Shown: positions 1,442 through 64,000 of the stretch, piece after piece
Position numbering within the stretch: the stretch's first letter is position 1
How the letters are laid out: every line of letters begins with the position of its first letter
DNA from: Enterovibrio calviensis DSM 14347
GTDB taxonomy: Bacteria > Pseudomonadota > Gammaproteobacteria > Enterobacterales > Vibrionaceae
Reading direction: 5' to 3'
Length of the DNA stretch: 64,000 nt
Assembly: GCF_000621165.1 (NCBI RefSeq)
Contig: NZ_JHZA01000001.1
Location: 744,001-808,000 of the forward strand
The notes under the pieces: model-generated
Seen by the model: the letters and a program-made list of their open reading frames with translations, nothing else
The model's database searches: none
What the model was told of the DNA's origin: nothing
Made by a program: the position numbers and the translations under genes

Positions 1442-1520
1442 AATTCTTTGTTAAGTATTAGAACAAAATCGTCGTTATGACCGCCTGTGGCAGTTACCAA
1501 GCTGATATTTCTTTTCCAAC

Positions 1521-2096: not shown

Positions 2097-2547
2097 ACAT
2101 CCTTATTAACAGAATCCAGTTCGAGTCCGTTAGGTAACTAACAAACTTGAGTATACCGCTGTCGGTTTGTTGCTTTTGTTCCCAAATTGAGACCGTTAGG
2201 GGATGGTAGGTCGAAGCTTGATTCTTAGAGGTTTCATATACTGTCTGACTTATCGGCATTTAAATGGAATTGAGTGCATTGATTTATTTTTCCATGAATA
2301 AACATGTTAAAAATGATGAATAATTGACCAATAAACCATTTTTTGAATATTAATTAATCATTGAAATTAAACAATTTTAGTTAAATTAAGCATTTTGACT
2401 ATATGTTGACCTTCATCAGTAGTTCTATTGGTCATAACCACAAAAATCTCTGATTGGAGGTGGGTTTGGTGCTTTCGTATACTCGGGGTGTCAATCGGCA
2501 AAAGCTGTTGACCATGATGAATATAAAACTGCCGTGTAGAGGGAACT
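2097..2547. other. Intergenic region, divergent promoters
   Basis: A 450-bp A+T-rich gap between the divergent lipoprotein gene and the 5-oxoproline operon. It must hold the promoters of both. The stretch around 2340-2400 is especially A+T-rich. I see no hairpin or known operator I would defend. A Shine-Dalgarno-like AGAGGGA lies just before the ATG at 2548. Confidence 0.4.
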
Positions 2548-3270
2548 ATGATCGATTTTTGGCCATTAATTGGCGTGGTAATAATTACGGTAGGGTTAGC
2601 GTTAAAACTCAATACATTGTTGGTGATTCTTGTTGCAGGTGTTACCACCGGCTTAATTGCAGATATTGCCATCATGGATATTCTCTCCACCTTGGGGCAA
2701 TCTTTCACCCAAAACCGCTATATGTCCCTGTTTATTCTCATTCTTCCTATGATTGGCATTCTAGAACGCTTCGGTCTTCGTCAGCGTGCTGAAGCCCTGA
2801 TTGGAGCCATGAAAAAGGCATCAGTCAGTAAAATTCTAATGACCTATTTGTTGCTGCGAAAAGTCACAAATGGCATGGGCCTAAGTATCGGCGGTCATCC
2901 GGCTATGATTCGACCACTGATCGCGCCAATGGCAGAAGCCGCAGCAGAAAAAGAATCTCCGAATATGTCTGATGCCAAACGTCAATCCATTAGAGCGCTT
3001 TCTGCGGCGAGTGAGAACTTTGGTAACTTTTTCAGTCAACTTCTGTTTGTCGGTACTGGCGGTATTTTGTTGATTAAAGGCGTGATGGCTGACAATCAAT
3101 TGGATGTGAAGTTAGAAACCATGGCGTTGTGGGCACTTCCGACTGCCGTTGCGTCATTCGTGGTGTTTGTCATTTTCAGTAAGATCATGGAAACGAGGCT
3201 GCTTAAGTCAGCAGCTAGCTCCCAAGTGACGGCGTCTGCAAACGCCACTTCGAAGAAAGCGGGAGAATAA
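2548..3270 (+). CDS. 5-oxoproline transporter subunit, DUF969 family
   Basis: 240 residues with about six hydrophobic segments and a polar C-terminal tail. The sequence MIDFWPLIGVVIITVGLALK and the motif SIGGHPAMIRPLIAPMAEAA match the DUF969 membrane family. Members are nearly always paired with a DUF979 protein and often sit beside pyroglutamyl peptidase or 5-oxoprolinase genes, and the pair has been assigned to 5-oxoproline (pyroglutamate) transport. The next gene is the DUF979 partner, only 3 bases after this stop. The AGAGGGA ribosome-binding site is well placed. The inner-membrane transporter role is inferred from family and context. Confidence 0.85.
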   Translation: MIDFWPLIGVVIITVGLALKLNTLLVILVAGVTTGLIADIAIMDILSTLGQSFTQNRYMSLFILILPMIGILERFGLRQRAEALIGAMKKASVSKILMTYLLLRKVTNGMGLSIGGHPAMIRPLIAPMAEAAAEKESPNMSDAKRQSIRALSAASENFGNFFSQLLFVGTGGILLIKGVMADNQLDVKLETMALWALPTAVASFVVFVIFSKIMETRLLKSAASSQVTASANATSKKAGE

Positions 3271-3273
3271 ACG

Positions 3274-4179
3274 ATGTTAGAGTACATTTATCAGACCACG
3301 GGTTTGCTGCTTCTCGCTTTTTCACTTCAAAGCTTCCTTGATAAGGACAATCCTAAACGTATCGGTAGCGGGCTATTTTGGCTCATCTACGGCATGACGT
3401 TCATGTTTGGCGCAGTCATTCCCAACTGGGTAACAGGCTTGATGGTGCTCGCACTGACAGCCTTGGCGGCGGGTGGCTTTATGGGGGTGGGCAACTACCG
3501 CACAACCACAGAAGAAGAACGTAAGAAAACTGCCACGGTACTGAAAAACAAACTCTTCATTCCTGCTGCTATTGTTCCAGTGGGTACGGTTGCGATCAGT
3601 CAGTTAACCACTTTGGGTGCGTTGGTAGGCTTAGGCATCAGTTCGATTGCGTCTATTTTGGTTGCGCTGATGATCACCAAAAGTAAACCGATGCATAGCC
3701 TAAGTGAAGGTCGCAGACTGATCGATTCAATTGGCTGGGCGGCGATTCTGTCGCAGTTTCTTGCCGCGCTAGGTTATCTCTTTAACCAAGCGGGTGTCGG
3801 TGACACGGTCGCACAGATCGTGAAAATGATGATCCCTGAAAACATGCTATTGGTGAACGTGATTGCGTACTGTGTGGGCATGACTATTTTCACCGTGGTT
3901 ATGGGTAACGCATTTGCTGCTTTTGCTGTGATCACCACGGGTATCGGTATTCCATTGTTGGTGTTAGAAAACGGCGGTAACGCAGCGATCATTGGTGTGT
4001 TGGGTATGCTTTCGGGTTACTGCGGTACGCTGATGACACCGATGGCGGCCAACTTCAACGTTGTGCCAGCTGCCTTGCTTGAACTAAAAAACAAGCACCA
4101 TGTTATTTTGATGCAGGTGTTGCCAGGTCTATGCATTTTGGCCTTCAACATCTTCGTGATGTATAGCTTTGCATTCTGA
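3274..4179 (+). CDS. 5-oxoproline transporter subunit, DUF979 family
   Basis: 301 residues, almost entirely hydrophobic with roughly nine to ten membrane segments. [20 protein letters not shown] at the N-terminus and [20 protein letters not shown] near residue 250 are typical of DUF979 proteins. It follows the DUF969 partner by 3 bases and precedes pcp by 8, so the three genes form a tight operon. The expected job is uptake of 5-oxoproline or pyroglutamyl peptides across the inner membrane together with the DUF969 subunit. Substrate is inferred from context. Confidence 0.85.
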
Positions 4180-4187
4180 GAGTAGTG

Positions 4188-4826
4188 ATGAGAAAAGTAT
4201 TGATTACGGGCTTCGAGCCTTTTGGTGGTGCATCTGTTAACCCAGCCTTAGAAGCGGTTTTGCGATTGGATGGGCTTAAGTTAAATGGTGGCGAAATTGT
4301 AACTTGCTCAGTGCCTGTTACTCGTTACGATGCGATTAACGCAGTGACAAAGGCGATTGAACTTCATCAGCCAACATTTGTTATCACTGTGGGTCAGGCG
4401 GCAGGTCGCAGTGCCATTACCCCTGAGCGTGTCGCGATTAACATCGATGATTTTCGCATTCCAGATAACGGTGGCAATCAGCCCATTGATGAGCCAATTT
4501 TTGATGATGGGCCAGATGCGTATTTCAGCACCTTGCCAATCAAGGCCATGACATTGGCGATGCAGGAACATGGTATTCCTTGCAGCGTATCCAACACAGC
4601 GGGAACATTTGTATGTAACCATGTGTTTTACGGTGTTCAGCACTTCTTGCGTGACACGGACATTGGACATGGTTTCATCCATATCCCACTTTTGCCAGAG
4701 CAAACTGCTGCAACTGACCAGCCATCGATGTCACTAGAAACCATCGTTGAAGGTTTGAAAGTGGCGGCGCAAGCGACACTGGACAATAAGTATGACGTCG
4801 CCGTAGGTGCAGGTAAAATTTGCTAA
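4188..4826 (+). CDS. pcp: Pyroglutamyl-peptidase I (C15 family)
   Basis: 212 residues, the usual length. The cytosolic cysteine peptidase removes N-terminal 5-oxoproline from peptides. The GFEPFGG motif is at residues 8-14. The catalytic triad is in the expected places: Glu80 (ITPERVAIN), Cys143 (TFVCNHVFY) and His165 (GFIHIPLLP). The ATG at 4188 is chosen over the overlapping GTG at 4185 because GAGAG lies just upstream. It is the last gene of the transporter operon, which supports a route of uptake followed by cleavage. No 5-oxoprolinase gene is visible in the window. A strong terminator follows. Confidence 0.93.
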
Positions 4827-4880
4827 TATTATTAATCGTTCATCAAATAGCGCCCTGACGCGAGGGATGAATGTGACGTG

Positions 4881-4914
4881 AAAAAGCCTGACAGCGAAAG
4901 CTGTCAGGCTTTTT
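4881..4914. terminator. Bidirectional terminator after pcp
   Basis: Perfect 15-bp stem AAAAAGCCTGACAGC around a GAAA loop, flanked by A and T runs. It lies between convergent pcp and the secreted Calx-beta-like gene. Confidence 0.92.
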
Positions 4915-4962
4915 AGTTTACTGATAGTGGTTAATTAACAGAGAGTGATTAACTCACTTCTG

Positions 4963-6687
4963 TTAGCGGACAACACAGACGTTGTTGCTGGCATTTTGAT
5001 AACGAAGACCACCGCTACCGTTACAGAAGGTTTCATTCAACGTAATTTGGCATTCAAGGTTTCCGCTGGCATCAAGCTTAATGCTGCCGCTGATACTGGT
5101 GTTAATGCGGGTGCCCGTGGTGCCGCCATTGCTACAAACTGATGAGTTGTTAGAGCCGCTGCCAGAATAGGTGACGGAGCGAAGGTCTCTTACCTCAGTC
5201 ACACCAATTTGGGTATTCCAGTCATTTCGAGTGCCACCACCATAGCTGTTGGTCGACCAAGAAACACGTTTGCTGGTACTTTGTGCACTGATTGAAGGGC
5301 CGCCAATCCGACCGTTTGCGCAGTTCACTTGCACGTAAGCACCGTTGACAGTCACTGATACAGAATTGTTGGTGCCACAGAGATTTGGAACCACAGGTTC
5401 ATCGTTATCATCAATCGTCAATGTGCCGGTTTGCTTATCGCTTTCGTCATCTTTAAACCAAGCATTCAACGTGGCGGATTTAGTTTCTTCATCAGTGGCG
5501 TCATCAATGGTGGGGATTTGAACGACAAACCCATCAACGCCTGCAGGGACGTTAACGACGATACCGCCGCCAGAGATTCTCGTATCGATGGATGTATCAT
5601 CGCTAAAGACAATGGTCACATCGCGCTCATAATCTTCCCCTGCTTTCGCTGTGCCGTTTTTCAGCGATAAGTTAATGTCTTTTGTCGCTTTCGTTTCCAC
5701 ATCAAATGCCACAGAGAGACTGCCTGTTTCACCTTCGGTGACGGTGTCGTTGCCGACCGACTGGACATTAATAATTTTTTCACTTGGGAAGATGGTGGGA
5801 TCATAGCAAGTATGATCTTCCTGCGTGTTGGTGGAAAAGGCATTGATGCGAGCGGGGAATAGCCCAGCTCTTACTTTCTCGCCCGTTTCTGGGTTTAATC
5901 GCCAGAGAATGGTGCTATTGATATTACTGGTGACGTTTTGATTTTTTGCTGCTGCCAACACTTGGCCATTTTGGTCAAGGGTCACCGCGGTCACAAAGTT
6001 GATATTGTGAAATGACTTGAGTGCCAACTCGCCAGTCGCGGTGTTCACGGAGAAAGTGCGTGTATTCGTGACATACAGCAACTCTCCTTCATAGAACAAA
6101 AAATCACCCCACGAGCTAAAGCCGCCAAATCTCACCGAGTCACTAAAATTGGAAAGTTGGGTAACGACGCCGTCACTAGGGTTAATAGAAAAAATGGTGG
6201 CTTTGTCTGACGCGATAAGTCTTTGTGATGCACTGTCATATGCCATTCGATAGGTTTCAGGCACATTGGCAACCACGGTATGGGTTTGGGTGTTGTGATC
6301 GTAATACGCTAATTGGTTTGGTTTTGTCGAGTCAGCATGAATCGACAAACTGTTAAACTCGTCAGCGCTAACCACATTTTCTACGCCTTCAATGTAATAG
6401 CTTTCAGGCTGTGGCACGCTCACGTAATAGGTACGATTAGTCGTAGGGTCATAGGCCATTGCGGAGCTACTAAATAATGCACGAGACGCTAAAAGAGCGC
6501 GAGACGTGGCATCTGAATATCCTACGAGTTGTTTGCCTTCTTGAATATCCAGCAATAAACCGACTTGGCCTCGACCACCATTAATGGAATACACATTCCC
6601 GGGACAGGCTGCGTATGCACTGCTTGAGGCCAGTGCTACAACGGCAATGAATCGAGCAAGGGCTTTCTTTTGATAGTTTCTGACCAT
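4963..6687 (-). CDS. Secreted propeller-like / Calx-beta-like protein
   Basis: 574 residues. A signal peptide ends at about ASSSAYA, residue 27. Residues 28-305 carry repeated short beta motifs (AYDPTTNRTYYV, AYDSASQRLIAS, LWRLNPETGEK) like those of a beta-propeller. Residues about 320-440 look like a Calx-beta module: VTEGETGSLSVAF, NGTAKAGEDYE and a closing TLTIDDNDEP. The last 130 residues are rich in Ser, Gly, Asn and Cys and start after NLCGTNNS. Calx-beta modules bind calcium in extracellular adhesion proteins. The function here is unknown; surface or extracellular location is inferred. A degraded piece of a paralogue lies upstream near 7050-7142. Confidence 0.75.
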   Translation of the reverse strand: MVRNYQKKALARFIAVVALASSSAYAACPGNVYSINGGRGQVGLLLDIQEGKQLVGYSDATSRALLASRALFSSSAMAYDPTTNRTYYVSVPQPESYYIEGVENVVSADEFNSLSIHADSTKPNQLAYYDHNTQTHTVVANVPETYRMAYDSASQRLIASDKATIFSINPSDGVVTQLSNFSDSVRFGGFSSWGDFLFYEGELLYVTNTRTFSVNTATGELALKSFHNINFVTAVTLDQNGQVLAAAKNQNVTSNINSTILWRLNPETGEKVRAGLFPARINAFSTNTQEDHTCYDPTIFPSEKIINVQSVGNDTVTEGETGSLSVAFDVETKATKDINLSLKNGTAKAGEDYERDVTIVFSDDTSIDTRISGGGIVVNVPAGVDGFVVQIPTIDDATDEETKSATLNAWFKDDESDKQTGTLTIDDNDEPVVPNLCGTNNSVSVTVNGAYVQVNCANGRIGGPSISAQSTSKRVSWSTNSYGGGTRNDWNTQIGVTEVRDLRSVTYSGSGSNNSSVCSNGGTTGTRINTSISGSIKLDASGNLECQITLNETFCNGSGGLRYQNASNNVCVVR

Positions 6688-6999
6688 GAGGAGCTCCTTA
6701 TACTAATTATTTTGTGACAATCCCTGTCATGAAGACGAAGCATGTTGTCTCAACTCTATCCTCGAAAATGACACGCAGAGCGGCTCACTTATGAGACCTT
6801 GTGTATATGTAGTGAAACTAATGTTTGGAAACCTAAATTAGGGCTTAGCTTTTTTGAAAGAAAGCCTTTAATTAGAACGGCTTTGGCTTGGCTGGGGCGG
6901 AAAAAAGAACACGTGAGTGTTTTAAACGAGAAGGGTTATCTCTGCATTTTCTGTCTTAGAAAACGTCTATCAAGCGAGGCTTATTCTCAAAATAGTGTT

Positions 7000-7160
7000 T
7001 GAAGAGAAAGGTGCGTAAGGGAGCTTCGCAGAACAAAGGCATGACAAACTAAAAATCACCCCACGACGACAGTCGCCAAAATCATGCTGACGTATGACAA
7101 AATTGTTGGGTAGCAAATGGCCACTGGGGTTAATAGAAATTGATAGTTTCAGCACTCTAT
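7000..7160 (-). pseudogene. Decayed fragment of a paralogue of the 4963-6687 gene
   Basis: Bases 7050-7142 align with 6106-6195 inside the intact gene. Both start AAATCACCCCACGA and end GGGTTAATAGAAA, with scattered substitutions and small indels between. Translated on the minus strand, the fragment reads SISINPSGHLLPNNF, against TIFSINPSDGVVTQLSNF in the intact protein, followed by a matching FG..R/S..G.IF pattern. Only about 40-50 residues remain, without a start or the rest of the gene. It therefore looks like the residue of a tandem duplicate that was mostly deleted. The outer limits are approximate. Confidence 0.6.
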
Positions 7161-7265
7161 AACAATGTTGCGTCACAAAGGTTAAGTGTTGAAGTCATCG
7201 AAGGCGATGTTACCGATTTACCAAGTAAAAAGCAGGCGTTAACAATGAGAATCTCTGTAAAGTAA
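7137..7265 (+). pseudogene. Possible 3' remnant of an unidentified gene
   Basis: An open plus-strand frame without a start ends at TAA 7263-7265. It reads with a strikingly protein-like composition: VASQRLSVEVIEGDVTDLP, then SKKQALTMRISVK. It begins where the paralogue remnant on the other strand ends, as if a deletion joined two gene ends. I do not recognise the family, and chance cannot be excluded for 43 codons. Confidence 0.3.
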
Positions 7266-7477
7266 TAATCACTAATGTATTGATTTCTAAATTAGAAATC
7301 TATTCATGCCCATCCCAAGATTGTATTTCCCGGGTTGATAGTTTCTCGTGGAATATCGCGTTGTTGTCTTTTCTGAATGGCCGTTTTTTAGATTAAGTAT
7401 TTCTTGATATTAGGTATTTTGTCGCAGATGGGTGCAGGGAGGCGGCTGGGAATAGCAAGGCTAGTTAGGTAATAAAT

Positions 7478-7498
7478 AGCCGCCCATTGAGGGCGGCT
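7478..7498 (-). terminator. Hairpin after potD
   Basis: Stem AGCCGCCC / GGGCGGCT with a 5-base loop, directly after the potD stop. On the minus strand it is followed by only a weak T-rich tail (ATTTATT), so efficiency is uncertain. Confidence 0.6.
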
Positions 7499-7505
7499 TC
7501 GGGTG

Positions 7506-8537
7506 TTATTCGCCAGTTTTAAGGCGTAGGAAGTAGTTTTCGTACTTCTCTGTTAATTCACCCACAGCGTCTTGCCATTCCCCACGATCGAGATCTTCTT
7601 GTGGTGGGAATAATGCTGGGTTGTCTTTGTAGGCTGAGTTTGATTTCTCTACCGCCGTCAGATAACCGGTATCCGCACTGATTTTTGCTGCAATCTCAGG
7701 ACGTAGAAGGAAGTCGATCATCTTATGTGCTGCTTCGACGTTCTTCGCGTTCTTTGGAATAGACAGGCTGTCTACCCAGAAGATGCCACCTTCTTTTGGC
7801 CATACCAATTCAATCGGCAAGCCTTCGCGTTGCGCCGCTGCCGCAGAACCATTCCACAACATACCTAGGCCTACTTCGCCTGACATGTAAGGGTTAGCTG
7901 GGTTGTCTGAGTTAAATACCAAAACGTTTGGCATTAACTTTTTCAACTCTTCGTAGGCTTCGTCGATCTGCTTAGGATCGGTCGAGTTACCTGAGTAACC
8001 GAGTTTACGCAATGCAATGTGGAACACTTCGCGGGTGTCGTCCATTAGCATAATTTGACCTTCCAACTCTGGGTTCCATAAATCGCCCCAGCTGGTGAAA
8101 TCGTCAGGGTTGTACATGTCGGTGTTGACTGCCAGACCCGTCATCGCAATCACGTGAGGGATCGAGTAGTCATTGTTTGGGTCGAATGGCTTGTCAAGGT
8201 AGTTTTTGTCTAGCTCGTTGAAGTTGTTCAACTTAGAAAGGTCAAGCTTCTGCAACATATCTTCATCGCGCATTTTTGCAACGAAATAGGTTGATGGCAC
8301 CACAAGATCATACCCTTGAGGGTGCGTCTTCATTTTTGCATACAGGGTTTCGTTTGACTCATAAGTTGAGTAAATCACCTTGATGCCAGTTTCGCGTGTG
8401 AATTGCTCTAGCAACTCGGTGGAGAGGTAAGGTCCCCAGTTCGCGAAAATCAGTTGATCGTTTTCTGCTTTCGCAGGTGTGGTGAACATAGCAACTGCAC
8501 AAGCAGCGCTGGCCAGAATTGCAGACCATTTCTTCAT
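7506..8537 (-). CDS. potD: Spermidine/putrescine-binding protein PotD
   Basis: 343 residues. The start at 8537 is chosen because it begins a proper signal peptide (MKKWSAILASAACAVAMFTT, cleavage after PAKA) and has GGAG upstream. The long in-frame extension up to 8666 lacks such features. The mature protein starts NDQLIFANWGPYLSTELLEQ and contains YDLVVPSTYF and GEVGLGMLWNG, matching the PotD/PotF polyamine-binding family. It delivers polyamines to the PotABC permease from the periplasm. No potA, potB or potC gene lies beside it, so it is an orphan binding protein that must share a permease encoded elsewhere, or act as a polyamine sensor. Confidence 0.9.
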   Translation of the reverse strand: MKKWSAILASAACAVAMFTTPAKAENDQLIFANWGPYLSTELLEQFTRETGIKVIYSTYESNETLYAKMKTHPQGYDLVVPSTYFVAKMRDEDMLQKLDLSKLNNFNELDKNYLDKPFDPNNDYSIPHVIAMTGLAVNTDMYNPDDFTSWGDLWNPELEGQIMLMDDTREVFHIALRKLGYSGNSTDPKQIDEAYEELKKLMPNVLVFNSDNPANPYMSGEVGLGMLWNGSAAAAQREGLPIELVWPKEGGIFWVDSLSIPKNAKNVEAAHKMIDFLLRPEIAAKISADTGYLTAVEKSNSAYKDNPALFPPQEDLDRGEWQDAVGELTEKYENYFLRLKTGE

Positions 8538-8886
8538 TGGTGTTATCCACTCCAAGTCCCGTGTGTCGGGAGCATTCATACAGCGAAAAGAGTGTTTTCT
8601 CTTTCGCTTAGTGTTTGAAAATGTCAGCCATTTTCGTAGGTTATTCGAGCATAAAACTCTTCGCATCGCATGCCAGTTGGGCGCTGCGGGCGAAAAACCG
8701 CGGGATATTACCCATGAAATTCAGTTCAGGCAATACAAAAGCAACAAGACAAAGAACAAATTTATGGGAAACAAAAAAGGGAGACGGATTATTACCAATG
8801 AGTAAGGATGATTTGCCAGAATTGCCGATTATCTCGCCGATGAAAAAGGCTACAATTTCTCCATCAAGTTGAGGGAGGTATCGCTG

Positions 8887-37510: not shown

Positions 37511-38524
37511 ATGATGAAATTAAAACCTCTTGCGCTTGGTATTTTAATGGCGGGTTTGACGGCTGGCGCAGCACATGCCTGTACTTCTGTTGCATGGAAC
37601 ACCGAAGACCATGGCACCATTACGTCACGTACAAACGATTGGATGGAAGCAACTAATCCCCGTTTAGGTGGCATTGTAAAAGGCGAGACTCGCTATATCC
37701 AAGGTCCAAGTGCGGGTATAGATTACACCGTGAAATATGATGTGGTCGCGGTACTTCCATACGGCTTGGATCTGGTACATGACGGCGTGAATAGTGAAGG
37801 TCTTCAGGTCAACACGCTTTACTACCGCCCGATGACGATGGACGCGGTATCAAAGTCTAGTCAAATCTCACAGCTGACGTTGAGTGAATATATCATCACT
37901 AACTATGCCTCTGTTGCAGAAGCTGTTGAAGCCTTACCAACGCTTGATTACGGTTACCTAAAGTTAGAAGGAATGCCCGCTGATATTGTCCTGCACTGGT
38001 CAATTACGGACAAAAGTGGCGACCGAGCAGTGATTGAAATGGACCCTGATGGGCTAAAAATTTACCGTGGGGAAGAGGCCGCGGTCATGACAAATGACCC
38101 GTCAATGCAAGAGCACATCGACAATCTAAAAGAGTTGACCCCAAAGTGGGAATCGGCGGACCGTAATCTGACATTCGGTTCAAATGGTAATAGTGCATCA
38201 CGCAGCCGTTTTGTTCACGCAAGTTACTTCCTAAGCCAGCTAGACGAGCCAAGCAGTGCATTCAACGGCATGATGAAGCTCTCGACTGTACCTTACAGAG
38301 TACCGGCAGATGCACCTTATATGGATTTTGGTGAGGGCATGACAGGTTATGCGACCGAGTGGACTCTCTCACAAAGCCTAGAAACCGGTGACAGTGTCTT
38401 TGAATATAATTTTGGTGAGAACTGGAACACTGTGCGTTTCAATGTGTATGAGTTGATGGGAACATCTTTTGAAGCATCACTCATTGAGTCAGATATGGGG
38501 CAATTGGACGTGGTAGAGAAGTAA
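37511..38524 (+). CDS. Secreted Ntn-hydrolase, penicillin V acylase/choloylglycine hydrolase family
   Basis: 338 residues. The signal peptide ends in AHA|C, so processing exposes Cys24 as the N-terminal nucleophile, as needed for Ntn enzymes. Other active-site residues fit: Asp43 (TNDW, position 20 in mature numbering), Asn195 (MTNDPSM) and Arg231 (ASRSRF). Gram-negative members cleave linear amides such as penicillin V and, in several species, long-chain N-acyl-homoserine lactones. Location is periplasmic. The preceding LysR gene is on the same strand. The real substrate cannot be read from the sequence. Start taken at the first of two adjacent ATG codons. Confidence 0.9.
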   Translation: MMKLKPLALGILMAGLTAGAAHACTSVAWNTEDHGTITSRTNDWMEATNPRLGGIVKGETRYIQGPSAGIDYTVKYDVVAVLPYGLDLVHDGVNSEGLQVNTLYYRPMTMDAVSKSSQISQLTLSEYIITNYASVAEAVEALPTLDYGYLKLEGMPADIVLHWSITDKSGDRAVIEMDPDGLKIYRGEEAAVMTNDPSMQEHIDNLKELTPKWESADRNLTFGSNGNSASRSRFVHASYFLSQLDEPSSAFNGMMKLSTVPYRVPADAPYMDFGEGMTGYATEWTLSQSLETGDSVFEYNFGENWNTVRFNVYELMGTSFEASLIESDMGQLDVVEK

Positions 38525-39106
38525 CGCGTTAGCCATGGTAGCCAGGCATTGTTGGATACGATGCCTAGCTATCTAACCGCGATTATAGAGTGTAGGTAAA
38601 CGTCACTCGGTGATGCATAGACGAGCGTCAACGCAATGAAAAAAGTTTTAAGGGTTCACGATTTTTCTTTGTTCTACAGGCTGAGGTGAAAGGTTGAGGA
38701 TGCTTGTAGATATATCTAAAACCAACAGTGGGATTTATTTCGTTAATATTTTCATTTTTGGTTTTTTTGTCGATAAATATCAATATTCAAGTCATTCGTT
38801 AATGCATTAATTAATTTGTTTGTGGTGTATTTTAATTCACCTACTTTAATAAGCTTCTGGTGTGATTTCTATTTTTCTGTAAGCTCGCTTTAGATTTTCA
38901 TTGTGTTCTACCACAACTATTAGATTTAATTGCGCTTTTTATTTAAATTTTCCGTCATTTTATTTATACTTGGGTGTCATGGTTTAGGGGATAATAAAGC
39001 TTGTACCATCGGCACCAAGAGCCCTAAATGACAAGTGGATTAATCATTCATCTAATGAAGAATCCAAGATAAGTGAAGACGAATATTTTAATTTGGGAAG
39101 AGTGTA
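38525..39106. other. A+T-rich intergenic region
   Basis: A 582-bp gap, unusually A+T-rich from about 38700 on, with no credible reading frame. ATACTTGGGTGTCATGG near 38967 resembles one end of the inverted-repeat element but is too short to be sure. It holds the promoter of the aldo/keto reductase gene; GGGAAGAG precedes the ATG at 39107. Confidence 0.4.
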
Positions 39107-39985
39107 ATGAATGAAAACATCAATGAACAGCTGATAGCTGGATTCTGGCGAACATCTCTTTGGGGTAAGTCTTCTAATGAGTTGAATTACTTTATAAATC
39201 AGCTTATTGAGTGTGGAATTACGACGTTCGATCATGCCTACGTTTATCGTAGTGAAGCGGCTTTTGGTGAGGCGATGGCACTTTCAGACTCCCTCAGAGA
39301 TCAGACCAAAATAATCACGAAATGCGGTATTCGTGGTGTTGGTCCTGGTTCTTTAGATGCGAAGAGCACTAGCCACTATGATTCTGATAAATCAACCATC
39401 ATTAAATCAGTTGATAACTCGCTAAAGGATCTAAAAACTGACTATATTGATACGTTGCTTTTACATCGTCCTGACTACTTGATGAATGTCCAAGAGGTCA
39501 ATGAAGCGTTTAATGAATTGAAGAACGCTGGAAAAGTTAGGAACTTTGGTGTTTCAAACTTTAATGTCACGCAGTTCAACCTGTTGCAAAACGCCTTGGA
39601 CGTCAAGCTATGCACCAACCAAATTGAGTTTTCTCCATTTAATACGGAAGCACTTGATAATGGCTTGTTTGATCAATGCTATCAAAATCAAGTTAGCCCA
39701 ATGATTTGGTCTTGTTTAGGTGGAGGGAAACTCTTTGATGAGAGTCATCCTGTGACAGCTAGGCTGACAAAAGTGTTGAATGAAATTGCAGAGGAAATTG
39801 GCGCAGTCTCAATTTCACAGGTTGTATACGCATGGGTGTTTAAATTGCCGTGTCAGCCTAGAATCATTACTGGTTCTAGCAAGATTGAAAATATTGCACC
39901 ATTGGTAGATTCAATTAATTTAGCGCTTTCAAAAGAGCAGTGGTATCAAATTTGGGCTGCTGCTGTGGGCCATGACGTTGCTTAA
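39107..39985 (+). CDS. Aldo/keto reductase
   Basis: 292 residues, (alpha/beta)8 family. The catalytic tetrad is present: Asp and Tyr in TTFDHAYVYRSEAAFGEA, Lys in KIITKCGI and His in TLLLHRPDYL. KVRNFGVSNFNVTQFNLL is the usual later signature. It resembles the YdhF-type oxidoreductases. It reduces a carbonyl with NAD(P)H in the cytosol; substrate unknown. The gene and its upstream region are more A+T-rich, with more TTA/AAT/GAT codons than neighbours, which suggests later acquisition. Single gene. Confidence 0.9.
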   Translation: MNENINEQLIAGFWRTSLWGKSSNELNYFINQLIECGITTFDHAYVYRSEAAFGEAMALSDSLRDQTKIITKCGIRGVGPGSLDAKSTSHYDSDKSTIIKSVDNSLKDLKTDYIDTLLLHRPDYLMNVQEVNEAFNELKNAGKVRNFGVSNFNVTQFNLLQNALDVKLCTNQIEFSPFNTEALDNGLFDQCYQNQVSPMIWSCLGGGKLFDESHPVTARLTKVLNEIAEEIGAVSISQVVYAWVFKLPCQPRIITGSSKIENIAPLVDSINLALSKEQWYQIWAAAVGHDVA

Positions 39986-56907: not shown

Positions 56908-57083
56908 TCATACCTCTTTATTGGCGCTGTGTTTTTTTTCTAGAAATGCACCCATTCTTGATCTGAGACAGTAAAAGGGTGAAAAACACCTTATCGTTCA
57001 AATAAAAGTTGAGTAGCTCAAAAATAATTGAATAATGGGTATTCTGAACGTTCCGTATCACCCATTTGCCAACGAGATTTTTC

Positions 57084-58283
57084 ATGAGCAATTCACTAGT
57101 ACTCGTCCTGAACGCAGGCAGTTCCTCTCTTAAATTCGCATTGATGGATGCACAAACCGGCGAGGCGATGTTATCTGGCCTTGGTGAGTGCTTCGGCCTT
57201 GACGATGCGCGTATTAGCTGGAAGCGCGAAGGACAAGACAAGCAAGAAGTTATGCTTGAGCAAGGTGGTAGCCACCACGAAAAAGCGGTGGGTCTCATCG
57301 TTGAATTGGTCGAAAGCATGGACGTGGGTAGCCGATTGGTTGCTATCGGTCACCGTGTTGTTCACGGTGGCGAGAAGTTTGCTACTGCGACCTTGCTTGA
57401 TGAAAGTGTTGTGGCAGAGATTGATGCGTTGAGCGATCTGGCTCCGCTGCACAACCCAGCCAACGTCATGGGCATTCGTGCTGCGATGAAGGCGTTCCCA
57501 AGCCTGCCACAAGTGGCTGTGTTTGATACTGCATTCCACCAAACCATGCCAGAGAAAGCCTTCACTGGTGCAATCTCTAATGAGCTTTACAAAGATTACG
57601 GCATTCGTCGTTACGGATTCCACGGCACAAGCCACTACTTTGTTAGCCGCGAAGCCGCGAAGGTATTGGACAAGAACATCGATGAAGCTAACTTCATTTC
57701 TGTTCACCTAGGTAACGGTGCATCTGTTTGTGCAGTGCGCAACGGTCAATCAGTTGATACCTCAATGGGCTTTACGCCGCTTTCTGGTTTGATGATGGGC
57801 ACACGTTGTGGTGACCTTGACCCAGGCATCATTGAGTTCCTGCTGAAAAAAGGCTGGAGCCAAGAGAAAGTATTCGAAGCACTGAACAAGAAATCCGGTT
57901 TCTTGGGTGTGTCTGGCCTAACTTCTGACGCACGTGGCATTCTTGAAGCCATGGAAAGCGGTCACGAAGGTTCGAAGCTGGCGTTTGAAGTATTCACCTA
58001 CCGTGTGGCGAAATACATCGGTTCTTACCTGATCCCTCTAGACAGCCTAGACGCGATTATCTTCACCGGTGGTATCGGCGAAAACTCGCTGCCAATCCGT
58101 CGTGAAATCCTAAGCAACCTGAAACTGTTGGGCTTTGTTGAAGATGAAGCGGGCAACGAAGCGGCACGCTTCGGCAATGGTGGCATCATCGCGAAATCAG
58201 AAATGATGGGCGCGGTAGCGATTGTTGTACCAACCAACGAAGAGTTCGTTATCGCTTCACAAGCGGCTAGCTTTGCTAAGTAA
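57084..58283 (+). CDS. ackA: Acetate kinase
   Basis: 399 residues, normal length. LVLNAGSSSLKFALMD is the ASKHA phosphate-1 motif. GFHGTSHYFVSREA and NFISVHLGNGASVCAVRNGQ are the remaining signatures. It interconverts acetate and acetyl phosphate with ATP in the cytosol. Start at 57084 (MSNSLVLVLN), as the upstream in-frame codons lack a ribosome-binding site. The usual partner pta does not follow: a terminator and then a convergent gene come next. It may therefore be a second ackA copy. Confidence 0.96.
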   Translation: MSNSLVLVLNAGSSSLKFALMDAQTGEAMLSGLGECFGLDDARISWKREGQDKQEVMLEQGGSHHEKAVGLIVELVESMDVGSRLVAIGHRVVHGGEKFATATLLDESVVAEIDALSDLAPLHNPANVMGIRAAMKAFPSLPQVAVFDTAFHQTMPEKAFTGAISNELYKDYGIRRYGFHGTSHYFVSREAAKVLDKNIDEANFISVHLGNGASVCAVRNGQSVDTSMGFTPLSGLMMGTRCGDLDPGIIEFLLKKGWSQEKVFEALNKKSGFLGVSGLTSDARGILEAMESGHEGSKLAFEVFTYRVAKYIGSYLIPLDSLDAIIFTGGIGENSLPIRREILSNLKLLGFVEDEAGNEAARFGNGGIIAKSEMMGAVAIVVPTNEEFVIASQAASFAK

Positions 58284-58310
58284 GTAACGACACCGAATGG
58301 TTATATGAAT

Positions 58311-58340
58311 AGCCGCTGATGAGAATCAGCGGCTTTTTTT
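58311..58340. terminator. Terminator after ackA
   Basis: Stem AGCCGCTGAT / ATCAGCGGCT with a GAGA-type loop and a run of seven T. Confidence 0.92.
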
Positions 58341-58484
58341 GAGTCGTCTGCTAATACATTTTGTGCTGCTAATAAAAAAGTTACTAGCCTTAACCTGTTA
58401 CTGTTCTATGTAAGAGCGGGTAGCGGATAATAAGAAGCAGGCATACTTTTTCACTAACCGCTTTCTATCATAAAAGAGAATTAA

Positions 58485-61400
58485 CTAATCGTTCTCCCCA
58501 ACTCTTATCCAACCTTCTGCAAGATCAGGGTCAATCCAACTCGAGCCTGATGCTGCTATCTTTTGTACCGTGGTCAAATACGTCTGTTGTCTGGGAATAA
58601 AACTTCGCCACTGATAAATAGCTCTACGTCTTACAATGCCATCGAGCAGATCTTGAGGATCGACGATTTCTAAAATTGTGGCAGAGGGACTTGCGGCGTA
58701 AAGTGGCGCAGAAAGCTGGTATTTTTCTGTCGGTTTTTCTTGCTGTTCTTTTTTGTCCTTTTTCTCAGTGTCCTTAACCTCACTTTCCTCTTTAATAACA
58801 GAGAGCTGAAGCATGGCAAAGTTTGAGGGATTTTGTGGATGTAGCGGTTTGTCGACCACGTCGAAGAACAGTTGATTGTGCATTTTGGCGTTGTCTTTGC
58901 CATTCGATGATGCGGTTTTCAAAACAACACGAAGTTCCAAAATGTCGTCCGGTAGGAGTTCATAGTTATCGAGCTCCAGCGTGTAGGACAAATGATCCCT
59001 ACCATCAATAGCGTTGGGCCAGCCAAATTTTGCCATTTCCTCGTTCTGAGGTTGGCCATTCGACGTTCTGTTACGGTATACGGCCAATTCCAAAACGTTG
59101 TCTTTGAGTGTGGCAATGTTGTTACTGATTGAACCTCCACCAAATGTTATTGATGCATTGGTCTCTTCGCTATCGTCTTGGCGTAGCCCAAGAGCCAGCT
59201 CCAATCTGTCATTTTTCCTGACATCGTTAAGGTCGGCGGCAAAGACCAGATCTACTTTTTCGGCAACTCCAACAGGGCAGAAGTCCATTTTTGCAATGCC
59301 ATTTAGCCGATCGTTGTATTCAGGGTCGTCAAATCGCAGATATACGGGTATTTCTGTCGAGCTGAGTTCGCCACTGGCAGTGAGAAGCTCAAAGCGTAAT
59401 TGGCGCTCTATTGAATTGTCTCCGTCTGATTTCACTTCGATGATTACCTCTATCGGTGTAGCTGGTGGTTTGCTCATCGCCGCACTGAGAAGTGATTGCT
59501 TTGTTGAAAGACTAAACGGATAGAGATCGTGTGCGAGCGTGACTTTCTGATGTTCTATTTCACCCTGAGCTGCCTTTTGAGCTGTGTTCAGTATCTTCTC
59601 AATGTGTTGGAGGTCAAGGCTAAACACTTCGCCCTCTAAACGCGCTTCAGCCTTATTCACTAGCCATTTTTCAAGACTTGTTCCAGCCAGTAATTCGAAT
59701 GACAGAACGCCATTCCATTCACGACCTATCAACCCACGAGAAGGAGACCCAACCTTGAATGATGAGGCCCAAGCTGATCGGGGAGAACGGTCTAAGCCAT
59801 CGTAGCTACCGTTAATGCTTGGCTTTTGCGCCCGTGGGCCATGCAAAATAAGCAATGGGTCGGTTCCTGCCGCTACGATTTCCCCTTTTTCATGAGAGCT
59901 CGCACGTGTCCTGTCGTTGGCAGCCAATAAGGGAGGACGGGGTAGTTTGATATTGATTGGCACTTCAGATGCACGCAGGCCGGAGAAATCGAGACCAAGT
60001 CGCGTATCGGCCCAGGCTCCTGCTCTATCTGCCAACCTTGCGGTAAATGATCTGCCTGGGAGTATCGTTTGCATGTATGAAGCCGTTTCATCCGGTGATT
60101 TGTGAAGGTGTGCTGTTGGAAGCATGCCATCTGGCAAACGCGCTTGGAAATTGTCTGGCAGAGCACTAGTCAATCGCTGTGATTCCTGTTTTTCATGCCA
60201 CACTTCAGCCTCACGGAACGAGACTTGAGTGCGGTTATGCATTCGCATTGAAATCTTTTTTTCCCCAGATTTGGTAAGATAGGCAGCAGCGCCATGGTGC
60301 AATTGCCAAACGGTTTCAGAAGCTGTTGCAGTTAGCCTTGGGCCATCCGTTTCGGTTCCAAACAGCACATTGTCCTCACTTGCCCATAGTGCGGCTTGCG
60401 TTCGTATTGGAGAAAAGCCAGCAACCAGATAGTCGGGCACAGAAATGTTTTTCTCGCTGGGTGGTGTAATTCGCTGAGCCTGAGGTGGGGTTAATCTTGG
60501 GAGTGGAGTTGCAGCACTGGGGCGGATATTTTTTACAGCGCTGCTTAGGGCTTTTTCTGTGTCTTTCGATATTACAAAGAAATCGCTGTCACCATCATTG
60601 TGTCTGCGTGTGAGCGTGCCGGAGGAGCTCCATGGAGCTAACCGCTGGATAGTTTGATAAGCCCAACGTTTCTCTCGCTGCAGATTATCTTCACCCTCTA
60701 TAGTCATTTTTATTTGCTGTTTGCTGAGTTCAAGGATCTTTCTTCCATCACGAGCAGCGACATGGACAATCAGCTCGTAAGATTCTGATTTAGAGCTTTT
60801 AGCGTCATTTTGAGCGTCATTGACTTCACTTGTAGGGGAGGCAACCAAGTGACCTGCCAAGCTCTGTGCATAGTGTTTCATTGAAGCAAGCAGCGACTGT
60901 AAATTTGTTTCTCCTGACTCAGAAGTTGGGGCGGCACTGCTACCTCCCTGTGAAAACGTAAAGCCTTGAGGATTGTTGTCTGGCTTACGCTTACCGAGAA
61001 CACCTAAGATCAATACCTGATGTAACGCCGGGTAGTGGAGCCCTGCGAGCACCGTTTTATGGCTGCGTTTTATCAGTACGAACGACTGAAAAACCGAACG
61101 CGTTTCATAAGGGACTATGGCATCGTTGGAGGCCAATAGCTCGGGAAGTCCTAAAGCGCAGGCGGGGGCATCACCAGGGTGTTTGTTATGGGTGGTATCG
61201 GTGACTGATTTTCGGGCCTGGGATAACATTTCCCTGCTTGGTCTAGCGATTGTGCCAGGCAGGGGAAGATCCGTTCCATGTACCCATATGGATTCAGGGT
61301 GCGCCAATTTTGTGCGAAAAATGTCCAGGAACTCATCGTCAGGCTGCCAACGATTTGCAGTAAGAATGCTTGAGAAGGGGAGTGGTAAAACAACCCAATC

Positions 61401-64000
61401 TCTTTCTCCGTTTTCCGCAAAATCTAGCTGATGATGCGCAGAAAGGTCAACCACAAGCCCATTTTCGACGTTTTCATCAAGCCATTTTTGGCGAAGTGTT
61501 CCATTAAGTGCACTGTGTTTAGCCACTTTTTGACGGAATAACATTTTGGATAGGTTTGTGTCTTCAAGGTTTAAATTTTTGGGCTTGATGATGGCAAATA
61601 TCGAACATTCCCCTCTGTCTGGATGACCTTCGTCCAGTTTCCTGAGGTTCGAGCTGAGAACCTGAACGTTCAATAGCCTGACCACTTGGTACTGAATCCA
61701 GGACAACTGCGGACGGTCATTTTCTCGACCACCCCAATGCAGGCTATGTTTGACACGTGCAGCAAATTTCAGGTTTTTCCCTGAAAAGCGATGAAACGGT
61801 TGCCCCTCTAATATGATGTTAGCGGTATGCTTTATTATCTCAGTGCTGGAAGCATCGAGTTCTAGCTTGTTCCATCCACTTACAAGGTCGTCAGGCATTG
61901 CAATTTCGGGCCATGTGAAGAAGTTTTGCACAGGAATTGAGCCATAGAGACGGAAGTTATTGTCACTCCGTGTTTTTTGAAGCGTAAGGCTCGACTGGGT
62001 CGAAGCTTTTGGATTGGTGAGATTTGGGTTGAATACAGACAAAGTAGCCTTTGCTTCCAAAACTGCGTTGTTTAGCCGAAATCGAAACTCACCCCGATCT
62101 TTCTTATCTTTCTCAATACTCGGCAATGAAATACCTGCGGAAAAAATGCCTTGAATGCTACTTGGGGTGAATGGCTCGCTATCTACAACCTTCTCGTTGC
62201 CCGTGTTCCAGAGAAAATGAAGCCCCGTGTTATCCATTACCACGGTTTCGGGTGCAACGCGAATGTTTACGGCCTCGGAAAACAATGGGGTGGTGACAGT
62301 GCCATCCGCATGCGTGACTGGCATTGATGGTTGCTTCAGGTCTAACGTGATAGTTGTATAGATGTAAATATCGCTGTTAAGGCTGTCAGAGATAGTAGCC
62401 TTAATTTTTAGATCTGCAGCTTTTAGTGCCAACTGCCCTAGACCATTTTCTTCAGCGTCAATAAATGCTCTACAAACCGTCAACTCTCCCTTATGACAAT
62501 TGTTGTTTTCGAATACAGCCTTGAGAGACCTTGTCGTCCCTTGTTTTTCAAAATGAACTTTAAGTGGAATGCGAAGAGTTGTGCCAAGTAGTGTTACTTG
62601 CAACTCACCATTGTCTTCAGAAGGCACGTCAGTGTTAGGCCATTGCTTTAATGTCAGCACTGGAACGGGGTCGTCAAAGCCAGCACGATAGGCTAAAGGC
62701 CAACGAATCGAGGTGCTATTGAACGTCTCGAAGCGGGAGGTAAATGTGTCACCAGAAATGGTAAGCACCAGTTTTAGCAATCCATCACTGCCTCTCGGAG
62801 GTACAGTGTCAGGGTTTTGGGTATTCACTAACAAAAATGGCTGGCCAATAATTTCAATGGTCAGTTCGTCTTTTCCACGTTTTACGTTGTGAAGAGTAAG
62901 CGGAGTAAAGCGGATGCCGTCAACAGTGATGACGTCGGTTTTATATATTTCCTCGTTATATCCTAACCACCAACGAAAGCCTTGAAAAGGCGTATTGAGA
63001 TAGCTGTTGGCATTGACTGTGTGACGACTCCAATTATCTTGCTCATTGTTATTGTCTAATCGTGCGCGTGGATGCAGTTCTTTGGAGGACTCTTCAAGTG
63101 GTACATCGCTGAACCAAAACCTAAGAGATGTATTTGCGTCGCAAGAATAAGGCTTTTTCGCAGACAATAGCGTTACCTTTTCACCGTGAACTTGCAATTC
63201 CCGAGCAATAGTTGTGTCTGCGAATTCGAATTGATGAGGCGATATTAAAAGGCCGCGTTGGTCGTGAAATTCCCTTGTCTCGGATGCTTTCAACGTTGCT
63301 GTACCAAACTGAAACGCATTGCCCGACGCATCCAGTTTCGCGAACTGACCAATTAAATCCCCTTCACTAGGTAAACCTTCAACTGAGTGCAAATTCTTTT
63401 TATCGTCATCGAATGACCATGTCCCGACAGACTTCAGCCACCAAGGAGCAGGCCCGCCTTCATGAAAGCTATGGTCGCCTGCTTCTCGCTCGGCGGTGAT
63501 GGTTGTAAGTGCGCACAATTTCATTTTGACAGGCGAGGCCGTATAGCCGTCAGTGTGCAAATAGTACTGCGCCTGTTTTTTTGACTCATCGCTTTCGGAG
63601 GAAACTAGTTTGAAGGAAACAAGTGTGCGTCGGTCGGTAGCGGAAAGTGCGAGATCTTTTTGTAAGCCAGACCATACTGAATGCCACACTGCATCACTCC
63701 AATCTTCCCGCGTTGGCTTGTCCGGTCCGTTGTCCCTGCGTGGCAGAAACAAACGCGGTGCTGCGGGCTCGTGGTTTAGAGCAGTTTGCTGATTGTTTTT
63801 CTTTGATTGGTTTTTAGGGATGGTGCTTGTCGCGTATGCCTCATCTCTCCATGCTAAATCACAGCGAATTTCGATAGGCGTTTCTAAAATGGAATGTTTA
63901 GTCTCTACGGCGGGTTTATCGCCCCACTGAAGTGTACGGATGGGAATACGCTGGGGGGCTTGATCGTAAGAAGCTAAGCCTGGGTAGGCGACAATACTCG
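58485..64000 (-). CDS. Giant protein of unknown function, 5' end beyond window
   Basis: The frame ends at TAA-type stop 58485 and stays open to base 64000, so at least 1838 residues are present and the N-terminus is missing. (A TTG at 63752 is only an internal codon.) I see no transmembrane helix, lipobox or catalytic signature. The sequence is beta-rich with many WLGY, LPRPPLLAANDR and QFGTATLK-like stretches, and it includes Arg/Lys/Ser-rich spacers. A Lys/Glu low-complexity segment (KDTEKKDKKEQQEKPTEK) lies about 90-110 residues from the C-terminus (58700-58800). A cytoplasmic or exported structural protein is possible. I do not recognise the family. It faces ackA and is followed by no visible partner. 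Confidence 0.7.
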   Translation of the reverse strand, partial: SIVAYPGLASYDQAPQRIPIRTLQWGDKPAVETKHSILETPIEIRCDLAWRDEAYATSTIPKNQSKKNNQQTALNHEPAAPRLFLPRRDNGPDKPTREDWSDAVWHSVWSGLQKDLALSATDRRTLVSFKLVSSESDESKKQAQYYLHTDGYTASPVKMKLCALTTITAEREAGDHSFHEGGPAPWWLKSVGTWSFDDDKKNLHSVEGLPSEGDLIGQFAKLDASGNAFQFGTATLKASETREFHDQRGLLISPHQFEFADTTIARELQVHGEKVTLLSAKKPYSCDANTSLRFWFSDVPLEESSKELHPRARLDNNNEQDNWSRHTVNANSYLNTPFQGFRWWLGYNEEIYKTDVITVDGIRFTPLTLHNVKRGKDELTIEIIGQPFLLVNTQNPDTVPPRGSDGLLKLVLTISGDTFTSRFETFNSTSIRWPLAYRAGFDDPVPVLTLKQWPNTDVPSEDNGELQVTLLGTTLRIPLKVHFEKQGTTRSLKAVFENNNCHKGELTVCRAFIDAEENGLGQLALKAADLKIKATISDSLNSDIYIYTTITLDLKQPSMPVTHADGTVTTPLFSEAVNIRVAPETVVMDNTGLHFLWNTGNEKVVDSEPFTPSSIQGIFSAGISLPSIEKDKKDRGEFRFRLNNAVLEAKATLSVFNPNLTNPKASTQSSLTLQKTRSDNNFRLYGSIPVQNFFTWPEIAMPDDLVSGWNKLELDASSTEIIKHTANIILEGQPFHRFSGKNLKFAARVKHSLHWGGRENDRPQLSWIQYQVVRLLNVQVLSSNLRKLDEGHPDRGECSIFAIIKPKNLNLEDTNLSKMLFRQKVAKHSALNGTLRQKWLDENVENGLVVDLSAHHQLDFAENGERDWVVLPLPFSSILTANRWQPDDEFLDIFRTKLAHPESIWVHGTDLPLPGTIARPSREMLSQARKSVTDTTHNKHPGDAPACALGLPELLASNDAIVPYETRSVFQSFVLIKRSHKTVLAGLHYPALHQVLILGVLGKRKPDNNPQGFTFSQGGSSAAPTSESGETNLQSLLASMKHYAQSLAGHLVASPTSEVNDAQNDAKSSKSESYELIVHVAARDGRKILELSKQQIKMTIEGEDNLQREKRWAYQTIQRLAPWSSSGTLTRRHNDGDSDFFVISKDTEKALSSAVKNIRPSAATPLPRLTPPQAQRITPPSEKNISVPDYLVAGFSPIRTQAALWASEDNVLFGTETDGPRLTATASETVWQLHHGAAAYLTKSGEKKISMRMHNRTQVSFREAEVWHEKQESQRLTSALPDNFQARLPDGMLPTAHLHKSPDETASYMQTILPGRSFTARLADRAGAWADTRLGLDFSGLRASEVPINIKLPRPPLLAANDRTRASSHEKGEIVAAGTDPLLILHGPRAQKPSINGSYDGLDRSPRSAWASSFKVGSPSRGLIGREWNGVLSFELLAGTSLEKWLVNKAEARLEGEVFSLDLQHIEKILNTAQKAAQGEIEHQKVTLAHDLYPFSLSTKQSLLSAAMSKPPATPIEVIIEVKSDGDNSIERQLRFELLTASGELSSTEIPVYLRFDDPEYNDRLNGIAKMDFCPVGVAEKVDLVFAADLNDVRKNDRLELALGLRQDDSEETNASITFGGGSISNNIATLKDNVLELAVYRNRTSNGQPQNEEMAKFGWPNAIDGRDHLSYTLELDNYELLPDDILELRVVLKTASSNGKDNAKMHNQLFFDVVDKPLHPQNPSNFAMLQLSVIKEESEVKDTEKKDKKEQQEKPTEKYQLSAPLYAASPSATILEIVDPQDLLDGIVRRRAIYQWRSFIPRQQTYLTTVQKIAASGSSWIDPDLAEGWIRVGEND

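What the first reader, a model, noticed from the sequence alone, without database searches (positions are those of the whole stretch)
58485..64000. Giant unidentified protein of at least 1838 residues
Sequence shows one uninterrupted minus-strand frame from the window edge to 58485 with coding character throughout. No known domain, signal or membrane segment is recognised. It is beta-rich with acidic/basic low-complexity spacers. Its 5' end and any partner genes lie beyond the window. A gene of this size without a recognisable domain is the best candidate for an undescribed system, possibly starting an accessory locus beside ackA. That interpretation is inference.
Basis: partly seen in the sequence, partly recalled or inferred. 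Interest (0 to 1): 0.7.

Follow-up and report, generated by a model that had tools for sequence, protein, structure and literature searches.

The report
Giant protein pair with swappable wall-cutter
The open frame is the end of one of two giant, unidentified bacterial proteins that travel together as a mobile unit, usually beside a small enzyme of a cell-wall-cutting type that differs from host to host, which looks like an undescribed microbial conflict device whose working is still unproven.

Summary
In detail: 58485-64000 is open and coding. It is the last 1838 codons of a 2644-aa gene (B) that ends a run of four genes, mostly outside the window: T (163 aa, membrane) - M (610 aa, M23 peptidase) - A (3735 aa) - B. 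Neither giant matches a Pfam, NCBIfam, PHROG, PADLOC or PDB family significantly.

Beside them usually lies a small peptidoglycan-type or papain-like enzyme of changing family: M23, YkuD, C70, Amidase_6 or Tse1-like (11 of 15 by database similarity, two of these below the curated cut-off; 2 by motif only; 2 none seen). Two Rhizobium plasmids are 98% identical over 21 kb of A, B and a membrane gene, then diverge before that enzyme (YkuD or M23). Here the unit lies between 112-bp repeats of the ackA 3' end, 22.3 kb apart; related species hold other genes there.

Most likely a conflict module: a two-giant chassis that positions or delivers an exchangeable wall-cutting enzyme. Architecture and joint mobility are shown; function, target and route are inferred. 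Structure predictions failed (pLDDT 43 and 33).

The parts
58485..64000 (-). C-terminal 1838 codons of giant gene B (whole gene 2644 aa, G000:C1:802485-810419). Parts of the same unit beyond the window, in genome coordinates G000:C1, all minus strand: A 810450-821657 (3735 aa; residues about 899-1680 are the core alignable in the 14 A sequences compared), M 821654-823486 (610 aa, M23 domain at residues 64-151, overlaps A by 4 bp), T 823538-824029 (163 aa, two predicted membrane stretches)
   Evidence: B; A; M; T:
58230..58341 (+). left copy of the 112-bp direct repeat: last 54 bp of ackA, its stop and a terminator-like hairpin (hairpin by eye); the other copy is G000:C1:824576-824687, 111 of 112 identical, about 22.3 kb away
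57066..58283 (+). ackA (acetate kinase), the gene whose 3' end is duplicated; the open frame is complete

Best explanation
Shown: A and B are a two-giant unit that is found together and moves together, and in most loci a small enzyme of peptidoglycan-hydrolase or papain-like type, of a family that changes from locus to locus, sits next to them. Inferred: this is a microbial conflict module. A (3.3-4.1 thousand aa) and B (2.2-2.7 thousand aa) are made in the cytoplasm, assemble into a large complex, and hold, position or deliver the small enzyme; the enzyme cuts peptidoglycan, killing either a competitor (delivered effector) or the infected cell itself (defence by lysis). Membrane genes in some loci, or membrane segments fused to the enzyme, would help it reach the wall. 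The choice between competitor and self is open; I lean slightly to a delivered antibacterial effector, because one partner is a Tse1/Tae1-type amidase and the soluble partners seem to lack signal peptides, while the defence-rich surroundings speak for self-directed use.
For: A is followed by B in 15 of 15 loci (B similarity detected in 14; in Cupriavidus the neighbour has only the position and size of B). A tree (14 rows) and B tree (12 rows) agree in their well-supported groups. Partner enzymes with database support in 11 of 15 loci: M23 in the window genome, Ruegeria (6.3e-6, below Pfam's cut-off), Neorhizobium (by tblastn to M only) and R. leguminosarum; YkuD in Bradyrhizobium and R. ruizarguesonis (2.6e-4, below cut-off); C70 in S. 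chiapasense, R. anhuiense and Undibacterium; Amidase_6 in G723; a Tse1-like amidase in R. brockwellii, E=1.6e-19 to the T6SS effector. Cassette exchange: 98.1% identity over 21,149 bp ends 200 bp before the YkuD frame in one plasmid and 28 bp before the annotated M23 gene in the other. Mobility: A+B is the 80% identical block between Bradyrhizobium and Mesorhizobium plasmids; 112-bp repeats at ackA. Conflict context: AbiE, TIR, CHAT, FRG or ThiF/multiubiquitin genes in 5 of 9 annotated plasmid stretches; a GT4-conflict protein with a STAND-like part at the ackA site of a related species.
Against: No function of A or B is known or could be modelled. No wall enzyme was seen beside A-B in S. terangae (an M12 metallopeptidase lies 2.1 kb behind B) or Mesorhizobium, where only annotation and reading by eye were used for most neighbours. 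In Cupriavidus and G474 it rests on motifs read by eye that Pfam and the PDB did not support. The R. ruizarguesonis and G723 enzymes have no PDB match and the Bradyrhizobium one only E=0.005. C70 enzymes are known as protein proteases rather than wall cutters (recalled). No conserved immunity-like gene was seen behind the four enzymes checked. Membrane genes are not universal. PADLOC has no match for T, M, A, B. The ackA site also carries metabolic-looking cargo, no empty site was seen, and the right flank of the unit occurs in only 2 of 18 genomes of the genus. GC of A and B equals that of the window.
Confidence: 0.42

Rival explanations
1. Lysis-and-release cassette: the signal-less wall enzyme and the small membrane protein act like an endolysin and a holin, freeing a giant A-B particle or toxin from the producing cell, as pyocins and other tailocins are freed.
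For: Window M and Ruegeria M have no membrane span and the other soluble enzymes look signal-less by eye; membrane genes or fusions lie next to A-B in the window genome, R. ruizarguesonis, R. leguminosarum, S. terangae, R. brockwellii, G723 and G474; enzyme families vary as phage endolysins do (recalled).
Against: No multi-span gene found beside A-B in Ruegeria, Bradyrhizobium, Mesorhizobium or Undibacterium; L,D-transpeptidase and C70 folds are not usual endolysins (recalled); nothing shows that A-B form a particle.
Confidence: 0.17
2. Processing or anchoring: the small enzymes are peptidases or amidases that mature or attach the giants, which themselves act as surface or extracellular adhesive proteins in symbiosis or biofilm.
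For: Nine of the 11 plasmid hosts are rhizobia; very large bacterial proteins are often surface proteins (e.g. PMC12863079, title and start of abstract only); at the ackA site a related species carries a giant Ig-like repeat protein.
Against: No membrane span in window A or B by hydropathy, though single stretches reach the threshold in some relatives; no adhesin repeat domain in Pfam; exchange between unrelated enzyme folds is odd for a dedicated processing protease.
Confidence: 0.2
3. The enzyme association is a by-product of plasmid and island context, and A-B is a unit of some other function.
For: Mobile islands are rich in peptidases: M48, M12, C25, S8 and M20 genes are annotated farther away; in 2 of 15 loci no wall enzyme is seen.
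Against: 4-bp overlap of M and A in the window genome and Ruegeria, gaps of about 40 bp after B in S. chiapasense, R. anhuiense, Bradyrhizobium and G723; among the 183 annotated features of the nine annotated plasmid stretches the three named M23, L,D-transpeptidase or papain-like genes all lie within two genes of B.
Confidence: 0.13

Closest known systems
Pfam DUF6603 (PF20248)
   Same: The A core aligns with DUF6603 in two colinear stretches (hhalign P 1.1e-4 and 1.6e-4); one of 14 A cores hits the Pfam model at E=5e-4; DUF6603 proteins can also be giants, in at least two genomes beside further large genes.
   Different: Below Pfam's cut-off (19.2 of 27 bits) and no hit for the window's own A; no B relative detected in the four DUF6603 loci. 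DUF6603 has no known function (Pfam description).
Tse1/Tae1 and other peptidoglycan-targeting T6SS effectors (Tlde1 for L,D-transpeptidase folds)
   Same: The R. brockwellii partner is Tse1-like (E=1.6e-19); the set of folds (amidase, L,D-transpeptidase, M23) overlaps with effectors that kill by acting on peptidoglycan (Tlde1: PMC9638812, title and abstract start seen; the rest recalled).
   Different: No T6SS part is annotated in the plasmid stretches read; the chassis is a pair of unrelated giants; no immunity gene was identified.
Tc/Rhs toxin complexes and polymorphic toxins
   Same: Very large conserved scaffold with an exchangeable small toxic part (recalled).
   Different: No RHS/YD, Tc, PAAR or other known trafficking domain in A or B; the small enzyme is a separate gene.
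Anti-phage systems with exchangeable effectors (CBASS, Avs; recalled)
   Same: Large conserved component, variable effector, mobile islands, defence-rich surroundings.
   Different: No PADLOC match; no nucleotide-binding domain found; peptidoglycan enzymes are not usual effectors there (recalled).

Membership tests
Pfam DUF6603 (PF20248) | score above the curated cut-off of 27 bits | tested here: not met
   Best of 14 A cores 19.2 bits (S. terangae); the window's own A none; 0 of 4 genomes (own, G723, G474, G465) match the model even at E 10
Pfam DUF6603 (PF20248) | remote profile-profile similarity in the same order along the domain | tested here: met
   hhalign, two colinear stretches, probability 57% and 50%; suggestive, not a family assignment; a plain HMM search of the A profile against the DUF6603 loci reached only E=0.048
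Peptidase M23 (gene M) | Pfam score above cut-off | tested here: met
   32.8 against 28.7 bits, E=8.2e-8; PDB M23 chain E=9.7e-7
Peptidase M23 (gene M) | metal-binding HxxxD and HxH motifs | tested here: met
   read by eye in the translation as HNGVD and HVH; the motif itself is recalled
Known anti-phage defence systems (PADLOC) | any model match for T, M, A or B | tested here: not met
   0 families for all four, E up to 1
Tc/Rhs or T6SS-delivered polymorphic toxins | RHS/YD, Tc, PAAR, VgrG or other trafficking domain in the giants | tested here: not met
   No such family in Pfam, NCBIfam or PHROGs for window A and B, nor in Pfam for the G474 and G723 giants (A given in part)
Tc/Rhs or T6SS-delivered polymorphic toxins | immunity gene next to the toxic enzyme | tested here: inconclusive
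   No obvious candidate by eye behind the enzymes of Bradyrhizobium, R. leguminosarum, R. ruizarguesonis and G723; T or other membrane genes could serve
Tse1/Tae1 amidases (R. brockwellii partner only) | sequence match along the catalytic domain | tested here: met
   residues 206-336, E=1.6e-19

The most novel reading that the evidence does not exclude
A and B form a new kind of giant protein vehicle or cage, unrelated to contractile injection systems, Tc/Rhs shells or phage tails, that carries an interchangeable peptidoglycan-cutting enzyme to the cell wall of a target bacterium and spreads on plasmids and at gene-end integration sites.
Probability: 0.2. Interest if true: 0.9.

Novelty: categorically new. 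Interest (0 to 1): 0.64.

Why it matters
More than 5,400 codons of conserved coding DNA per locus with no known fold, moving between distant Proteobacteria together with exchangeable wall-type enzymes, one of them of an antibacterial effector type, point to an undescribed conflict machine. If true it adds a new chassis to the short list of ways in which bacteria place a killing enzyme. It also gives a first functional clue to the uncharacterised DUF6603 giants.

Tried and rejected
Structure: the A core (811 aa, 4 rows) gave pLDDT 43 and the B C-terminus (355 aa, 4 rows) pLDDT 33. PDB profile searches with A4, A2 and A1 gave nothing significant. No similarity between A and B was detected. B did not match the large neighbours of the G522 DUF6603 gene, nor, by HMM search, the other frames of the four DUF6603 loci. 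Phage or prophage origin: no match in 50,697 phage records or in two pattern scans of viral contigs. A holin-endolysin reading was considered and kept as a rival only, because the membrane gene is not universal. The genome-contig scan used two short peptide patterns only, so it under-counts. R. ruizarguesonis has a second place with similarity to A that I did not open.

Full report
Check of the observation. The minus-strand frame 58485-64000 is open to the window edge. The window is G000:C1:744001-808000; with the flanking DNA the gene is 2644 aa, 802485-810419. It is the last gene of a run of four on the minus strand: T (163 aa, membrane stretches near residues 32 and 106), M (610 aa), A (3735 aa) and B (2644 aa, the finding). 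M and A overlap by 4 bp and A and B are 30 bp apart. Scans of T, M, A and B gave one family above a curated cut-off: Peptidase_M23 in M, 32.8 bits against 28.7; PHROGs also report peptidase-type families for M, PADLOC nothing, NCBIfam only far below cut-off. The PDB agrees for M. Profiles of A and B find no significant PDB chain.

Distribution. B is absent from the 99 other genomes among 100 relatives searched, 17 of them of the same genus. With a profile of the A core, matches were 1 of 369 genomes of the class (the own one), 3 of 398 of the phylum (own, G723, G474), 2 of 385 of Ruegeria's class (Ruegeria and G1016, whose coordinates equal G474), 1 of 248 of G723's family (G723) and 2 of 249 of G474's order (G474, G723). 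The pattern scan of named genomes found Ruegeria lacuscaerulensis. Among 72,556 plasmid records 11 match: nine rhizobial ones and one each of Cupriavidus and Undibacterium. No match was found in 50,697 phage records. That makes 15 loci compared here.

The pair. In the 15 loci A is followed by B or by a gene of B's place and size. A is 3266-4108 aa and B 2191-2723 aa where intact, with an open frame of 2760 codons in R. leguminosarum. B similarity was detected in 14; in Cupriavidus (2304 aa) no BLAST match to another B was found. B is split in Undibacterium and R. ruizarguesonis, and both genes are frameshifted in the unannotated Neorhizobium record. A core of about 780 aa of A (899-1680) is alignable in the 14 sequences compared, Neorhizobium left out. 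Trees of A (14 rows) and B (12 rows; Undibacterium and R. ruizarguesonis dropped as split) agree in their well-supported groups; several branches are long, so deep joins are uncertain.

The small enzyme. Next to the pair usually lies a small gene of peptidoglycan-hydrolase or papain-like type. Database support: M23 in the window genome (8.2e-8), Ruegeria (6.3e-6, 26.7 bits, below the cut-off of 28.7), Neorhizobium (tblastn to M over 27% of it, 1e-21) and R. leguminosarum (2.3e-19); YkuD in Bradyrhizobium (2.3e-8) and R. ruizarguesonis (2.6e-4, 22 bits, below the cut-off of 23.4); C70 in S. chiapasense (4.6e-8), R. anhuiense (4.7e-11) and Undibacterium (6.2e-22); Amidase_6 in G723 (2.1e-6); and in R. 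brockwellii a domain that matches the T6SS amidase effector Tse1 at 1.6e-19, which Pfam had shown only as CHAP at 0.029. This is 11 of 15. PDB searches gave E=0.005 for the Bradyrhizobium enzyme and nothing for those of R. ruizarguesonis and G723. In G474 (M15-like motif behind membrane spans) and Cupriavidus (amidase-like motif) the call rests on my reading alone; Pfam and PDB did not confirm it. In S. terangae and Mesorhizobium I saw none; there most neighbours were judged by annotation or by eye, and an M12 metallopeptidase lies 2.1 kb behind B in S. terangae. Positions vary: before A (window genome, Ruegeria, Neorhizobium, G474, and 1.5 kb away in Cupriavidus), after B (S. chiapasense, R. 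anhuiense, G723, Bradyrhizobium, 0.46 kb away in Undibacterium), second gene after B (R. leguminosarum, R. ruizarguesonis), divergent before A (R. brockwellii). As a rough control, the nine annotated plasmid stretches list 183 features, three of them named M23, L,D-transpeptidase or papain-like; all three lie within two genes of B. Hypothetical proteins in those stretches were not all scanned.

Exchange and mobility. R. ruizarguesonis and R. leguminosarum plasmid stretches are 98.1% identical over 21,149 bp (A, B and a 317-aa membrane gene). The identity ends at 38400 and 38385, before a YkuD gene in one (38600-39181) and an M23 gene in the other (38413-38949). Bradyrhizobium and Mesorhizobium share an 80.5% identical block of 19,559 bp that begins 5 bp before A and ends in the last part of B. 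In the window genome the unit lies between two copies of a 112-bp repeat, 111 of 112 identical, that contains the last 54 bp of ackA, its stop and a terminator-like hairpin; the copies start 22.3 kb apart. No integrase was recognised by eye among the open frames between them. The closest species examined (ackA 91% identical, G012) has ackA and the same flanking regulator and transporter, but other genes between, again with a second, diverged copy of the ackA end: a 2318-aa protein with Ig-like and cadherin-like domains and three small genes, of which the one scanned has a phage collar domain. That right flank was found in only 2 of 18 genomes of the genus, and no empty site was seen. G001, G017 and G011 also carry a second, diverged copy of the ackA end with other cargo: a MotA/ExbB-type gene with unassigned neighbours, a GT4-conflict protein with a STAND-like part (the latter below cut-off), and sugar-use genes (by eye). 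In G016, G003 and G009 no second copy was seen in the 14 kb read. Overall GC does not set A and B apart from the window; third-position GC is somewhat lower (0.44 against 0.47-0.52 in three neighbours) and T is AT-richer. The Ruegeria copy has transposase-like and recombinase-like frames on its two sides (by eye).

What A may be. One of 14 A cores hits Pfam DUF6603 at 5e-4, below the curated cut-off. An alignment of four DUF6603 domains and the A-core profile give two colinear local matches with P 1.1e-4 and 1.6e-4, probability 57% and 50%. An HMM search of the A profile against the DUF6603 loci reached only E=0.048 and of the B profile 0.11. DUF6603 proteins occur in 4 of 200 genomes of the phylum (1513-3390 aa); at least in G632 and G522 they lie beside further large genes, and no B relative was detected there. 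No paper in the library holds the word DUF6603. Structure prediction did not help.

Mechanism. The exchange of unrelated folds that mostly share a substrate class, on a conserved chassis, is the strongest hint: the constant part positions or delivers, the variable part acts. The soluble partners show no signal peptide by eye (hydropathy was run on the M23 proteins of the window genome and Ruegeria only), as in T6SS effectors (recalled), and one partner is of that very type. Surroundings with AbiE, TIR, CHAT, FRG or ThiF/multiubiquitin genes (5 of 9 annotated stretches) and, by eye, AIPR-like and type III restriction-like genes beside G723's copy indicate conflict islands. I therefore commit to a conflict module with a wall-cutting output. 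Whether the wall is the cell's own or a competitor's is not decided; the missing immunity gene and the fused membrane spans in R. brockwellii and G474 keep self-directed lysis alive.

Literature. Searches for giant genes with cell wall and bacteria, for DUF6603, for M23/effector/polymorphic-toxin terms, for six accessions of A or B genes, and for giant proteins with plasmid, rhizobium and M23 showed no description of this pair among the papers listed (only titles and abstract beginnings of the listed part were seen; subscription papers and bioRxiv are not held).

Noticed in passing
window 58230-58341 and G000:C1:824576-824687: The 3' end of ackA with its terminator is duplicated around the 22-kb unit; five related genomes (G001, G008, G011, G012, G017) also show extra copies of the ackA end, in some of them tens of kb away, so it looks like an integration hotspot without a recognised integrase.
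   Followed up: partly
L043 (G001:C6) 2417-8752: At the ackA site a related species carries a MotA/ExbB-type gene (weak ZorA-like PADLOC hits, best 9e-5) with five scanned neighbours, four without any Pfam match and one with a weak one: a possible separate unknown system.
   Followed up: partly
L044 (G017:C62) 1088-5140: At the same site another related species carries a 1350-aa protein with GT4-conflict (2e-76), STAND-like and TPR parts.
   Followed up: partly
L033-L034 (G632) and L039-L040 (G522): DUF6603 giants lie beside further large proteins of no Pfam family (501, 1234, 620 aa; 681, 323, 1268, 1274 aa); two of these are similar between the two loci.
   Followed up: partly
L014 7238-13754: Upstream of and divergent to the G723 giants: a membrane protein with six predicted spans and a 996-aa patatin-like phospholipase with membrane spans; in S. 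terangae (L019 14959-16709) two adjacent frames look by eye like the same membrane protein in two pieces.
   Followed up: partly
CP140857.1 (R. ruizarguesonis plasmid): A second place with similarity to A on the same plasmid was reported but not opened.
   Followed up: no
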